Source of the DNA: Akkermansia muciniphila
GTDB taxonomy: Bacteria; Verrucomicrobiota; Verrucomicrobiia; Limisphaerales; UBA9464
Length of the DNA stretch: 64,000 nucleotides
NCBI GenBank assembly: GCA_945898055.1
Contig: CAMDGV010000016.1
Coordinates: forward strand, 1-64,000
Direction of reading: 5' to 3'
Shown piece by piece: positions 21,923 to 30,824 of this stretch (the first letter of the stretch is position 1; every line of letters starts with the position of its first letter). The position numbers were made by a program, and so were the translations under genes. The notes beneath the pieces are model-generated. The model did not search any database. It saw only the letters and a program-made list of their open reading frames with translations, and was not told the DNA's origin.

Positions 21923-21965
21923 TTTAGCCGGTGTAGCTCAGTGGTAGAGCAACGGTTTCGTAAAC
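21923..21965 (+). repeat. Left attachment repeat: truncated tRNA-Thr 5' half
   Basis: This is identical over 43 bp to 30782-30824. It covers the acceptor 5' strand, D-arm and anticodon arm up to two bases past the anticodon loop, then diverges (TGCTCCACAA instead of CGTAGGTCGT). It cannot fold into a tRNA. Confidence 0.9.
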
Positions 21966-22338
21966 TGCTCCACAACACGAAACATTTCCTGAATTTTAGT
22001 CAAGTCCAAGGCGCACAGGAATCATCAATGTTCACCGAAGTGCCGTAAACACAGGTTTTTTCGCATTTGACGAATCATTTTCTTGGTGCTACGTTACAGG
22101 CTTTTGAACGCAGTGACTTGTTGGGCAACTGTTGGGCATTTGGGAATCCCCAAACACACAAAATGGGTTGGTTGCGTGTTAACTTTTTGATGGAAATTCT
22201 TGAAGGAAAAAAGAACAAAAACACGGGATTGGCATACTCCTAAAGAAAATTTAAATGAACTAGTGTTACGTTTAAAAATTCAATCTGCCCATTCAAAAAA
22301 TATACATATTTAATATCTGTATATATGTATATTTAAAT
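21966..22338. other. Non-coding left end of the element
   Basis: No convincing gene in 373 nt. A short near-repeat TTGGGCAAC/TTGGGCATT occurs near 22120-22140. The sequence becomes very AT-rich from about 22190 into the MBOAT gene, with TATATGTATAT-like stretches near 22300-22335 that could include a promoter. Confidence 0.5.
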
Positions 22339-23514
22339 ATGTTTCTTACGCTAGCTATACCTATCGCTTTAATATCGTTACTGGTAGCATACGCTAAAAA
22401 TAGATATATAAATTTTATTTCTCCCTATCTATTTTTCTTTACTGGTCCTGTTCTAACTTATTTTGGATTTATTAATACTTTGACTGGGTTTAATGGAATT
22501 GATTCCAACAAAATTTATTTCGGAATTACTTTTTATACAGTTTTTATAGCATATCACCTTTCAAACAAAAGAAATGAAATTAAAAAAACTCCTGTAAATT
22601 TCATTATTTCAGTCTTAAATCCACTCTACTTATTCACTGGACCGATACCGAATAAAATTATAAACCAGTTTAGAATTATAACACCAAAGATAATTCTAAA
22701 AAGACTAATATTTATACATTCCGACTTACTTCTAGGAATACTTTTCGCATTCATTCTAGCACCAGTATTCAAACAATTTTTCTACCTCAAAGAAAGTATT
22801 ACTATAATTGACATATTTCTTTTTGGAATTGTATTTGAGCTTTATGTTTATTTCAATTTTGCTGGATTTTCATTTATAGCTGCTGGTCTTATGCGGCTAT
22901 TAGGTATAAAAGTGCTGCAAAATTTTAATCAACCATTTAGCGCTAAATCGATAGTTGAATACTGGCAAAGATGGCATATCTCATTAAGTTTTATTTTAAA
23001 GAAGTTGTTTTTTGAAAAAATCAAATCACAACTTGGATTATACATCACAGTATTTGTGGTTTTCCTTGCATCCGCAATCTGGCATGGTATTTCTTATAAC
23101 TTCATAATTTGGGGCTTGTTTCACTCCTTGATGTGGTGTATGGCACATTATTTTCACAAACAAAAATTCAAGGTTTTAAATTACTTTGTTTTAGCATACG
23201 GAATCATAGTTGGACGTGTCATATTCTCTGAGATAGATAGTAATTTTTTGTGGACCAAAATGAAGATTATTTTAAATATTTACAACTGGAATCTTAATAC
23301 TGAAATGGAAATCCCCAATATGGGAAGAATAGGTACTATAAATTTTATCATAGCAAGCATAATTATATCTCTTGAAGTAATATTACCTAGGTTTGGCTTT
23401 AAAAATTACAATTACTCCCATCTAAAATCTCATTTTATTTCCTGTCTTATTGCATTATATATATGCCTAGTATTATTCAATAGAAATGGAACACCAGTAT
23501 ATGGCGATAGATAA
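22339..23514 (+). CDS. MBOAT-family membrane O-acyltransferase
   Basis: 391 residues, rich in Ile/Phe/Lys/Asn, with many hydrophobic helices. The MBOAT core is recognisable: NPLYLFTGPIPN, YVYFNFAGFSFIAAGLMRLL, NFNQPFSAKSIVEYWQRWHI with the conserved WQRWHISL, and the catalytic His region ASAIWHGISYNFIIWGL. Such proteins (AlgI, DltB, PatA types) pass acyl groups across the membrane onto polysaccharides. Family members AlgI and PatA work with an SGNH-type partner; here such a protein follows with a 29-nt overlap. The low G+C content and codon use are unlike the host genes, so this pair was probably acquired from an AT-rich organism. Confidence 0.85.
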   Translation: MFLTLAIPIALISLLVAYAKNRYINFISPYLFFFTGPVLTYFGFINTLTGFNGIDSNKIYFGITFYTVFIAYHLSNKRNEIKKTPVNFIISVLNPLYLFTGPIPNKIINQFRIITPKIILKRLIFIHSDLLLGILFAFILAPVFKQFFYLKESITIIDIFLFGIVFELYVYFNFAGFSFIAAGLMRLLGIKVLQNFNQPFSAKSIVEYWQRWHISLSFILKKLFFEKIKSQLGLYITVFVVFLASAIWHGISYNFIIWGLFHSLMWCMAHYFHKQKFKVLNYFVLAYGIIVGRVIFSEIDSNFLWTKMKIILNIYNWNLNTEMEIPNMGRIGTINFIIASIIISLEVILPRFGFKNYNYSHLKSHFISCLIALYICLVLFNRNGTPVYGDR

Positions 23515-24382
23515 AACCAAATTCTTTTCAATTATTAAGATTATTGCATTTTTAATCTACTTCGCTTACTTTGCAATCTGTAATTCTAAATTCAATATTT
23601 ACTTACCACTCCATCCAAAGGGAATAGACTCAAAAAAAGAAGATATAAGTACACTAAAAAAAAACCTTCCTCATAAAATATCTTACGCATTAATAGGTGG
23701 ATCAAATGTCCAAAGAGGATTGTCTGGTGAGATAATCAGTTCTGATTCAAACATTTGTATAAATTATGGTATCGACGATGAAAATGGAGGAACTACTAAA
23801 TATTTTAATTGGCTCGATAGTATGGTGACAGCTAATGTTGTAGTCTATAGTCCAATCATTATCTGGAACGACGGGAATAATTTTTTAGGGGAAATCCAGA
23901 ATTCCAAAGAAAACTACTTTCCCAAAATTTCAATATTAAGCCAAATAGCTGCCTTCTTTTCCCTCCAAAAAAATCCTGATCCTTTAAATTTTAATAGTTT
24001 TGGAGATATGACTGACTACAGTTGTCATCAAAATATGGTCAACTTTAAAATCAATACACGAAGCTTTACTTTATCTAATGATTCTATTACAAAAGAAATT
24101 ATTGAGAGGGTAAATAAACTAAAAGAAATTACGAAAACTAGTAAAGTTTTAGTAAGGGTAGCCCCTATTTACATATTTGATAGAAATAAAGAGAATTATA
24201 TGCGTTTAATGAAAAAAAGAATTAAAATATTAAAAAATGCTGGGATAATTGTAATTGAAAATTCATTTACCTCATCAGATAGGACTTTATTTTGTGATGA
24301 AATCCATCCTAACCAAAAGGGTAGGACTTTTTTCTCAAAAGAACTAAAGAAGGCTTTGTTAAATTATAAAACTGCTCATTAA
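23486..24382 (+). CDS. SGNH/GDSL-like acyl-transfer partner of the MBOAT protein
   Basis: 298 residues with one N-terminal membrane helix (IIKIIAFLIYFAYFAICN), so the rest is probably periplasmic. The SGNH hydrolase blocks can be seen: block I ALIGGSNVQRGLSGEI with Ser in GGSN, and block V FCDEIHPNQKGRTFFSKEL with the Asp-x-x-His pair. It is likely the second transferase of a polysaccharide O-acylation system with the overlapping MBOAT gene. The exact target is unknown. It shares the AT-rich composition of that gene. Confidence 0.75.
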   Translation: MEHQYMAIDKTKFFSIIKIIAFLIYFAYFAICNSKFNIYLPLHPKGIDSKKEDISTLKKNLPHKISYALIGGSNVQRGLSGEIISSDSNICINYGIDDENGGTTKYFNWLDSMVTANVVVYSPIIIWNDGNNFLGEIQNSKENYFPKISILSQIAAFFSLQKNPDPLNFNSFGDMTDYSCHQNMVNFKINTRSFTLSNDSITKEIIERVNKLKEITKTSKVLVRVAPIYIFDRNKENYMRLMKKRIKILKNAGIIVIENSFTSSDRTLFCDEIHPNQKGRTFFSKELKKALLNYKTAH

Positions 24383-29435: not shown

Positions 29436-30668
29436 AATCGAAGAATTTGGTGGCGGTGTCTGAGTAAGGGTACAATGACCAAAACTGCTCAGCATCCGCC
29501 TTGGACACCATTCGCACATAATGCTTGGAAGCAGTAGCCTCGGAGTTACCGAGGTTGGCAGACAGTCGTGCTGCATCTCGGTTTTGACTCTGCCAGTAGG
29601 TGGCGAAAGTGTGGCGCATCACATTGTGGCTCCACGAGAACCCTAGTTCTTTCTTGAACCGTTCCACCAACCGGCGTGGCGGTGTTCCGATGAATGGTTC
29701 AGTTGGGGCCAGGTTCGCCAACCACGACTTGAGCACCGGCGTGATGGTGATGGAACGACCTCGTTTGGTTTTGGCGGACTTGCGAACCACCGATATGTGC
29801 ATCTGGTCCAGATTGATGTCGGACCAGTGAAGACGGGCGATTTCAGCCACTCGGATACCGGCGAACAGTCCGATGGATACTAACCCAACCAGTGGCTTGA
29901 ACTCAGGCAGATTGAGAACCGAAACCAACCGACGGCATTGTGCGAGGCTTAGAAATTCCGCTTCTGGAATCGGGGTCTTTACCTTGATGCGAACTGTGGG
30001 GTTGATGTCGGTGAGTCCTTGTTGAATGCACCAGTTGAGGAACTGACCGAGGTGACCCACAAAGTGCTTCCGCAGATGAGTGCTGGCTGGTTTGCCCTCG
30101 GTGGTTTGCAGGTCGTCTTTGGTCTGTCGGATGAGTTGGTAGCTGAGGTGTTGGAGTCGTTGGGTTGGGTAAATCTTTGCCAATCGTTGAGACCAGTATC
30201 GTAGCGTCCCCAAACTGCGTGGGCGCAAGACGCCATCGGTTCCAGCCTCTTTGTAGGCGACCCATCGTTTGAGTGTCTCGGTGACCAGTGGTGATGTCTC
30301 AGTGGATTGTTTGGACCGTAGCACCTCCAAGTAATGGGCGACCGCACGGCGATGGTTTTTCCGAACGGTTGCAGTTGCTTGGCAAACTCCGCCAATTCTC
30401 CGTTCTCCAGCAGGTTGGTGTAGCTACCTGCGCCCTCTACTCCCTTGTCATCCACTAGAGCCGCAACCTCCCGTGCCTTATCCAGAGCTTCTTTCTTGGT
30501 GAGGAATTCGGGCTGAGCTGGTCCAGTCCAACCCTTGCGTCTGCAATCCACTTGGTAGGCGAACCCCTTGCGTCGATTCACGATGCGCACCTTGGGGTAA
30601 TCCTCTCGGATGGTGGTGGTCTTGAGTTTCTTGGGCTTCAACTTTGCCTTGGCAGATTTGGTCTTCAC
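29392..30668 (-). pseudogene. Tyrosine integrase broken by one frameshift
   Basis: Reading from the ATG at 30668, the N-terminal part (KVRIVNRRKGFAYQVDCRRK, GWTGPAQPEFLTKKEALDKA) runs to QPFGKTIAV, near 30345. It then continues in another frame from AVAHYLEVLRSKQ to the stop at 29392. Joining the two frames by one inserted base near 30343-30350 gives a normal integrase of about 420 residues. The catalytic domain is complete: Arg in LFAGIRVAEIARL, HxxR in HNVMRHTFATYW and Tyr in ASKHYVRMVSKADAEQFW. The start lies about 120 nt from the tRNA it would recombine. It is either inactive, or a sequencing error or programmed shift is present; no slippery heptamer is obvious. Confidence 0.85.
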
Positions 30669-30781
30669 TGGCAGTGTTGGATCGTTGAGGGCGTGGGTGC
30701 AACGAAAGTTGTTGGTTTTTTGTTGGGCGTCAATGGTTCAAAAACGAGTCAAAACGCACAAACACCCTGTAAACATTGAAC

Positions 30782-30824
30782 TTTAGCCGGTGTAGCTCAG
30801 TGGTAGAGCAACGGTTTCGTAAAC
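30782..30824 (+). repeat. Right attachment repeat inside the intact tRNA-Thr
   Basis: The 43-bp copy matching 21923-21965. Here it forms the 5' half of the complete tRNA-Thr gene. Confidence 0.9.

What the first reader, a model, noticed from the sequence alone, without database searches (positions are those of the whole stretch)
21923..30824. Small integrative element that replaces the 5' half of a tRNA-Thr gene
The sequence shows a 43-bp perfect repeat of the 5' half of tRNA-Thr(CGT) at 21923 and the intact tRNA at 30786. Most tRNA-targeting elements duplicate the 3' half; here the duplicated part is leader plus nucleotides 1-39, so the intact gene now uses the element's right end as its upstream region. 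If the insertion model is right, the tRNA promoter is supplied by the element. The content (polymerase-like protein, DUF3102-like, two recombinases, acyl-transfer cargo) does not match a named element type that I recognise.
Basis: partly seen in the sequence, partly recalled or inferred. Interest (0 to 1): 0.7.

Follow-up and report, generated by a model that had tools for sequence, protein, structure and literature searches.

The report
Mobile element replacing a tRNA's front half
A small mobile DNA element has inserted into the middle of a threonine tRNA gene and rebuilt the gene with its own copy of the front half, so the gene's upstream control region now comes from the element, and related genomes suggest that this borrowed region can stay behind after the element is lost.

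Summary
A 43-bp perfect repeat of the 5' half of tRNA-Thr(CGT) bounds an 8.9-kb element. Same-genus genome G007 has the empty site. G014 has an orthologous element: its attL is native upstream region plus tRNA nt 1-37; its attR is the element's right end plus the whole tRNA. The block ends with the anticodon loop, the likely crossover.

Islands with a 5' tRNA fragment are a known minority (159 of 3919 in Islander), so the element is a new member of a known kind.

What goes further: in this genus the family uses Thr(CGT), Thr(TGT) and Arg(CCT), which share the near-palindromic arm CGGTTT-NNN-AAACCG, each with the matching 5' half. The sister integrase is a relic on the 3' side of the same window tRNA, and a collinear backbone in G010 has the usual 3' orientation, so orientation has flipped. 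In G014 and G017 only the element's right end remains before the one tRNA-Thr(TGT) found; tRNA-Arg junctions point to serial insertion. Promoter activity is inferred, not shown; consensus scans found none. The window integrase gene is split between two frames, so this copy may be immobile.

The parts
21923..21965 (+). attL: displaced 5' half of tRNA-Thr(CGT) (nt 1-39 plus 4 nt upstream)
   Evidence: block lengths
21840..21922 (+). stranded native upstream region of the tRNA; contains TTGCCG-17-TAGAAC, compare TTGCCG-17-TACTTA in the empty site of G007 (reading by pattern, not a promoter test)
   Evidence: the consensus scan found no promoter here
21966..22160 (.). element left end, conserved in G014 (81%) and G016 (80%)
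22339..23514 (+). MBOAT O-acyltransferase, DltB-like (cargo)
   Evidence: PF03062 E 8.8e-11; NCBIfam DltB E 1.4e-25, below its cut-off
23486..24382 (+). unassigned partner gene of the MBOAT gene; by eye it has SGNH-like GGSN and DEIH motifs (recalled motif, not tested)
   Evidence: no family above cut-off; AlphaFold model unusable
24466..25116 (-). C-terminal part of an undecaprenyl-phosphate sugar transferase
   Evidence: PF02397 E 5.9e-49; matches profile 285-432 of 453 only
25312..26484 (+). orphan protein ('Pol'), linked to integrases of this kind in several genomes; function unknown
   Evidence: found in 7 of 293 genomes; linkage
27151..27936 (-). unassigned element gene, 80% identical in G014
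28208..28450 (-). small unassigned element gene, 87% identical in G014
28779..29435 (+). serine recombinase (resolvase/invertase type)
   Evidence: PF00239 E 1.7e-26
29392..30674 (-). tyrosine integrase, in two reading frames in this assembly; the G014 orthologue is one 427-aa frame (93-95% identical)
   Evidence: PF00589 E 2e-7
30669..30785 (.). element right end, now the upstream region of the intact tRNA; contains CCTGTAAACATTG, a proposed integrase arm site
30786..30860 (+). intact tRNA-Thr(CGT), attR; by the model its 5' half is the element's copy
30987..31905 (+). broken relic of a related integrase on the 3' side of the tRNA, sister to the 5'-side integrase

Best explanation
This is a tRNA-targeting integrative element of the uncommon 5' type. 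Shown by comparison: an element with its own copy of the tRNA 5' half sits between the displaced host 5' half (attL, with the native upstream region) and the intact gene (attR, with the element's right end upstream). Inferred: the tyrosine integrase exchanges strands across the 7-nt anticodon loop, with the two sides of the near-palindromic arm CGGTTT-NNN-AAACCG as core sites and copies of a GTAAACA-containing motif near both ends as arm sites. The symmetry of that arm lets related integrases insert in either orientation, and this lineage flipped from the usual 3'-half orientation within a clade that uses the same tRNA gene. Because the loop holds the anticodon, the element must carry a 5' half whose anticodon matches the target, as it does at Thr(CGT), Thr(TGT) and Arg(CCT). 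After integration the element's right end acts as the tRNA's upstream control region; it can persist when the rest is lost, and a later element can integrate at the same gene. The cargo here looks like envelope-polysaccharide acylation and sugar transfer. The window copy may be immobile, since its integrase frame is broken in this assembly.
For: 43-bp repeat and intact tRNA. Empty site G007 against occupied site G014, matching on both flanks. Block from nt 1 ends with the loop: 37 nt in G014 and G016 and 39 nt at 4 of 4 Arg junctions; 36, 39 and 40 nt in G056, the window and G257. Independent case with both ends on one contig: G257:C4, tRNA-Ser. Same family at Thr(TGT) in G016 and at Arg(CCT). 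All 45 exact matches of CGGTTTNNNAAACCGTNG in 12 of 19 genus genomes have NNN = CGT, TGT or CCT; the arm is 14/17 symmetric. Sister integrase on the 3' side of the same tRNA, support 99/85. Collinear backbone in 3' orientation in G010. Right end left alone before tRNA-Thr(TGT) in G014 and G017.
Against: The two ends of the G014 element are on separate contigs, and about 0.8 kb directly 3' of its tRNA does not match G007. The window's neighbours ahpC and rpsT were not found by this tRNA in the other loci examined. Consensus scans found no sigma-70 promoter in element or native upstream regions. The 5' and 3' labels are not more clustered on the integrase tree than shuffled ones (101 of 500 as low), and the relic row fills only 41% of columns. 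G220 (tRNA-SeC) has the 5'-side arrangement but no fragment, and a different anticodon arm. G018-G009 upstream regions show no extra conservation near the tRNA. The arm pattern was chosen with the targets in view.
Confidence: 0.85

Rival explanations
1. The 43-bp repeat is a tRNA pseudogene or segmental duplication, and the DNA between the copies is ordinary chromosome.
For: The window's own flanks have no exact empty counterpart in the genomes searched.
Against: The G007/G014 pair shows insertion at the same break; integrase and serine recombinase lie inside; GC falls to 28-34% in 22.0-24.5 kb; left and right ends recur at other tRNA genes.
Confidence: 0.03
2. The element is inserted as described, but its right end has no promoter; the tRNA is transcribed by read-through or from a start inside the element that has no special role.
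For: No sigma-70 consensus was found in the right end. Conservation of the right end among elements could reflect integrase arm sites.
Against: The same right-end stretch is kept before the only tRNA-Thr(TGT) found in G014 and G017 with no integrase detected in those loci; the G017 gene has a paired stem change, so it is probably functional. The scan also missed the native regions, so it does not discriminate.
Confidence: 0.25
3. The left part (about 22.2-25.2 kb, low GC) is a separate cargo insertion inside an older, smaller element.
For: Sharp change in base composition; G014:C46 and G010 carry a different gene in this slot; the sugar transferase lacks its N-terminal part.
Against: The cargo lies between left end and 'Pol', the ordinary cargo slot in those relatives; no second insertion junction was identified.
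Confidence: 0.35
4. The right-end-like sequence before tRNA-Arg(CCT) is native to that gene, and elements took it up from there, so no promoter was replaced.
For: It is widespread: 8 places in 7 of 19 genomes. In G010 attL and attR share 38 nt upstream of nt 1.
Against: Three other genus genomes (G004, G012, G013) matched only in the tRNA part. The stretch shares motifs with the right ends before tRNA-Thr and has an integrase-like start in G014:C46. It does not touch the Thr(CGT) and Thr(TGT) cases.
Confidence: 0.15

Closest known systems
tRNA/tmRNA genomic islands with a 5' tDNA fragment (Islander class; Zhao and Williams 2002, cited in PMC6563490, original not held)
   Same: Tyrosine integrase, tRNA target, 5' fragment upstream of the intact gene in the same orientation, length within the class limits; the gene is restored by the element's copy.
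   Different: This family is in a Verrucomicrobiota genus (assignment from the KT_bin-2079 record title, whose contig number, length and match equal those of G014:C46), uses three tRNA genes with one anticodon-arm sequence, and leaves right-end relics.
Archaeal pTN3-like integrative elements (PMC8371274 and PMC5495485, passages)
   Same: attB is the 5' half of a tRNA; 41 bp shared in pTN3; the restored tRNA is separated from its original promoter.
   Different: pTN3 attP lies inside the integrase gene, which is broken on integration; here the att core lies upstream of the integrase gene, which is whole in G014. Host domain, tRNA and gene content differ.
G010 element at tRNA-Thr(CGT) (usual 3' type)
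   Same: Same backbone order: integrase, serine recombinase (73%), 'Pol' (62%), cargo; same tRNA gene.
   Different: The tRNA stands the other way round: the intact gene keeps its native upstream region and a 3' fragment lies at the far end.

Membership tests
tRNA-targeting genomic island, 5'-fragment class (Islander criteria, PMC4383910 passages) | Integrase gene within the interval | tested here: met
   PF00589 match in the window; intact orthologue in G014
tRNA-targeting genomic island, 5'-fragment class (Islander criteria, PMC4383910 passages) | Fragment is an end fragment of the tRNA, in the same orientation, with the 5' fragment upstream | tested here: met
tRNA-targeting genomic island, 5'-fragment class (Islander criteria, PMC4383910 passages) | Length between 2 and 200 kb | tested here: met
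   repeat start to start 8859 bp
tRNA-targeting genomic island, 5'-fragment class (Islander criteria, PMC4383910 passages) | Empty site in a relative | tested here: met
   G007 against G014; not for the window's exact flanks
tRNA-targeting genomic island, 5'-fragment class (Islander criteria, PMC4383910 passages) | Excised circle | not testable with these tools
   no reads; a candidate junction at a G033 contig end was not decisive
pTN3-like archaeal element | attB is the tRNA 5' half | tested here: met
pTN3-like archaeal element | attP inside the integrase gene (integrase broken on integration) | tested here: not met
   integrase of G014 is whole and lies 112 nt from the tRNA
Integrative and conjugative or mobilizable element | Relaxase or secretion genes | tested here: not met
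   no such Pfam or NCBIfam match among the window proteins scanned (10, 7 of the 8); small ORFs not scanned
Prophage or phage satellite | Phage structural or packaging genes | tested here: not met
   7 proteins against PHROGs (6 from the window, the integrase as its G014 orthologue): only integrase, invertase and transposase matches beside weak unknowns

The most novel reading that the evidence does not exclude
In this genus a family of elements has repeatedly and lastingly replaced the promoter regions of tRNA genes. The right end of a 5'-type element becomes the tRNA promoter, stays after the element is gone (tRNA-Thr(UGU), tRNA-Arg(CCU)) and becomes part of the landing site of the next element, while the palindromic anticodon arm lets sister integrases attack the same gene from either side. 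Three tRNA genes (window Thr(CGT); Arg(CCT) in G007 and G018) carry element sequence on the 5' side and a family integrase on the 3' side, so such a gene may owe its front half to one element and its back half to another.
Probability: 0.48. Interest if true: 0.68.

Novelty: new member of a known kind. Interest (0 to 1): 0.52.

Why it matters
Elements usually enter tRNA genes from the 3' side, which leaves the tRNA's own promoter in place. A bacterial family that does the reverse in several tRNA genes of one genus, with empty, occupied and relic states to compare, makes three questions testable: whether elements bring working tRNA promoters, how an integrase lineage flips orientation, and whether a host can come to depend on the remains of a dead element for an essential tRNA.

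Tried and rejected
Pseudogene or duplication reading: rejected by the empty/occupied pair. Conjugative element, prophage and plasmid readings: no supporting genes among the proteins scanned. Integrase and 'Pol' searches of viral contigs found no relative (pattern searches for close relatives only); the window 'Pol' found nothing in the phage collection; only the G101 homologue was tried in the plasmid collection, without match. 'Polymerase-like' and 'DUF3102-like': no support; single weak matches near E 0.02-0.09 were taken as chance. AlphaFold models of the 'Pol' protein and of ORF 23486-24382 were unusable (mean pLDDT 33.9 and 34.5), so no fold search was run. Sigma-70 scans found nothing in native or element regions.

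G033:C61 was first read as a possible excised circle; the contig has no terminal overlap, so the reading was dropped. G220 (tRNA-SeC) stays a candidate only. The tRNA-Thr(TGT) pattern cannot match the short D-loop form of this genus and served only to look for other TGT genes. I first took G007 and G018 as free of elements at tRNA-Arg; the check showed a family integrase on the 3' side (broken in G007, cut by the contig end in G018), and the report was corrected.

Rows dropped: the tree holds 35 rows, 9 without label; the G016 integrase piece (145 aa) was left out for length, as were the second piece of the window integrase and the G033 piece. The 3'-side label rests on gene arrangement; a displaced 3' fragment was checked only for G010.
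Full report
1. Observation. The window holds a 43-nt direct repeat, 100% identical, at 21923-21965 and 30782-30824. The right copy is the start of tRNA-Thr(CGT), 30786-30860, the only tRNA found in the window (Rfam on 20500-32500). The left copy stops just after the anticodon loop. The 3' half occurs once.

2. Empty and occupied sites. Searches of 59 genomes and 19 genus genomes led to two same-genus genomes. In G007:C22 (L068) purK is followed about 7 kb on by an intact tRNA-Thr(CGT) with no repeat. 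In G014 the same purK side (C238, L054) matches G007 at 84-88% up to tRNA nt 37 and then turns into a sequence 81% identical to the window's left end. Contig C304 (L053) holds the right part of an element 83% identical to window 26521-30860, then the intact tRNA, then, after about 0.8 kb that does not match, flank 88-90% identical to the G007 flank. The upstream region of the intact tRNA in G014 is the element's right end, as in the window. So the insertion model is confirmed in the genus, with limits: the ends of the G014 element are on separate contigs, and ahpC and rpsT, the window's neighbours, were not found beside this tRNA in the other loci examined.

3. Where the exchange happens. The block shared from nt 1 is 37 nt in G014 and G016, 39 in the window, 36 in G056 and 40 in tRNA-Ser of G257; at tRNA-Arg it is 39 nt at 4 of 4 attL junctions compared with the intact gene of G018. 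The loop ends at nt 37 in tRNA-Thr and nt 39 in tRNA-Arg and tRNA-Ser (from ARAGORN anticodon positions). Identity upstream of nt 1 is 0 nt in G014 and G016, 1 in G056, 4 in the window and 9 in G257, so the window's TTTA may be chance. The review PMC8371274 (passages) describes the 7-bp anticodon loop as the usual overlap region. That exchange occurs there in this element is inference.

4. Recurrence. In G016 an integrase 86% identical over its first 124 residues (contig end) sits before tRNA-Thr(TGT); a nt 1-37 fragment of that gene with the left end lies on another contig. In G257:C4 both ends lie on one contig 25.7 kb apart: 40 nt of tRNA-Ser(GCT) and the intact gene with the integrase beside it. 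At tRNA-Arg(CCT), right-end-like sequence plus nt 1-39 occurs at 8 places in 7 of 19 genomes; 4 run into the left end and 4 into the intact tRNA. In G014:C46 the host side of such a junction is a short right-end relic followed by host genes, which suggests an earlier insertion at the same gene. In G008 the left end follows a non-tRNA sequence that shares only the anticodon-arm part, a likely secondary site. Of the 30 best integrase loci the integrase lies at the 5' side of a tRNA in 5, at the 3' side in 16, and with no tRNA in the locus in 9 (loci hold 1.5 kb of flank at most). A displaced 5' fragment was found for 4 of those 5, not for G220. A 5' fragment also lies 1.6 kb before tRNA-Thr in G056, without an integrase of this family.

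5. Target rule. Thr(CGT), Thr(TGT) and Arg(CCT) share the arm CGGTTT-NNN-AAACCG, symmetric at 14 of 17 positions. Exact matches of CGGTTTNNNAAACCGTNG occur in 12 of 19 genus genomes; all 45 rows have NNN = CGT, TGT or CCT on one strand or the other. In the 30 fetched loci, which overlap, 53 of 55 matches lie in ARAGORN tRNAs; the other two are a tRNA-Arg cut by a contig end and a tRNA-Thr 3' fragment. The pattern was chosen with the targets in view. The carried 5' half matches its own target, anticodon included. G257's tRNA-Ser arm fits the rule; G220's tRNA-SeC arm does not.

6. Orientation flip. The integrase tree (35 rows) places the window and G014 integrases beside the broken integrase on the 3' side of the same window tRNA (30987-31905) and G168:C55 (99/85), then a 3'-side integrase at tRNA-Thr(CGT) of G067 (97/87). 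Starred branches force at least two changes of the label, but the label is not more clustered than shuffled labels (101 of 500 as low), and the relic row fills 41% of columns. In G010 a 6.3-kb element (integrase 30%, serine recombinase 73%, 'Pol' 62%, a cargo gene LamG-like by eye) has the order of the window element, but the tRNA is reversed and a 3' fragment lies at the far end. The arm's symmetry is a simple reason why both orientations are possible; this is inference. A family integrase also lies 3' of tRNA-Arg(CCT) in G007 (broken) and G018 (cut by the contig end), whose upstream regions are right-end-like.

7. Borrowed upstream region. In G014:C17 and G017:C318, about 170-180 bp of right-end sequence lie directly before tRNA-Thr(TGT), with no integrase found in the loci; G001:C225 has the same but ends inside the tRNA. 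The neighbourhood is shared with G018 and G003, which have a different upstream region. No other tRNA-Thr(TGT) was found in G014, G016 or G017 (completeness 94-97%). The G017 gene has a paired change in the anticodon stem. Upstream of tRNA-Arg(CCT), G018 and G007 agree at 58 of the first 60 nt and 56 of the next 80 (p=4e-5); G007-G009 at 47/60 and 45/80 (p=0.007); G018-G009 at 47/60 and 60/80 (p=0.69). The Thr(TGT) relics give 60/60 and 71/80 (G014-G017), 56/60 and 68/80 (G014-G001), 56/60 and 72/80 (G017-G001). Former arm sites could explain part of this. Consensus scans found no promoter in native or element regions; with a looser pattern the native regions of G007, G014, G010 and G011 have TTGCC(G/C), 17-18 nt, TA-hexamer at one distance, the window's attL has TTGCCG-17-TAGAAC, and the two element right ends tested have none. 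So any promoter in the right end must be of another form.

8. Content. MBOAT, part of a sugar transferase, a serine recombinase and a tyrosine integrase are supported. GC falls to 28-34% in 22.0-24.5 kb. The 'Pol' protein was found in 7 of 293 genomes. The window integrase is in two frames while that of G014 is whole; decay or assembly error cannot be told apart.

9. Known or new. Islander counts 3760 islands with 3' and 159 with 5' fragments (PMC4383910, passages). PMC6563490 (passages)' recombination considerably less frequent. PMC8371274 (passages) says that pTN3-like elements use the 5' half, that the tRNA is then expressed from the integrase promoter, and that this was seldom met in bacteria; PMC5495485 (passages) says the pTN3 target tRNA is separated from its original promoter. 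Zhao and Williams 2002 was not held. So the element is a new member of a known kind. My searches of openly licensed papers listed no report of right-end relics serving a tRNA or of this family; subscription papers are not covered.

Noticed in passing
window 26737-26751 and 27876-27890; L053 278-292 and 1419-1433: The palindrome GTGACACNGTGTCAC occurs twice in the window (0 expected in 100 shuffles), flanking and inside the start of gene 27151-27936, and twice in the G014 element (one with a mismatch); it may be an operator.
   Followed up: partly
window 26543-26590 and 26864-26911: Two 94% identical 48-nt copies in the non-coding stretch after the 'Pol' gene, also paired in G014.
   Followed up: no
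window 28696-28733: Two adjacent copies of a 19-nt sequence (89%) before the serine recombinase gene.
   Followed up: no
window 30987-31905: Broken integrase relic directly 3' of the tRNA; no displaced 3' tRNA half was found in the window.
   Followed up: yes
G000:C47:31278-31490 (L155, L160): A second, broken fragment of the 'Pol' gene (76%) elsewhere in the window's own genome.
   Followed up: no
L059 / L135 start (G033:C61): Contig end with integrase start (44%), right end, tRNA-Thr(TGT) 5' half and a short left-end-like stub; tandem or serial insertion, or circle.
   Followed up: partly
L056 3531-5136 (G056:C12): A 36-nt tRNA-Thr 5' fragment 1.6 kb before the intact gene; between them small genes that by eye resemble an antitoxin and a Doc-like toxin (recalled motif, not searched) and no integrase of this family.
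   Followed up: partly
L055 10763-11896 (G010:C59): Another integrase-like gene just beyond the 3' tRNA fragment of the G010 element, perhaps a tandem older element.
   Followed up: no
L068 6249-12644 and L054 1381-7755: A gene of over 2100 codons with repeated cadherin-like stretches (by eye) lies upstream of tRNA-Thr(CGT) in G007 and G014 but not in the window, where ahpC takes its place.
   Followed up: no
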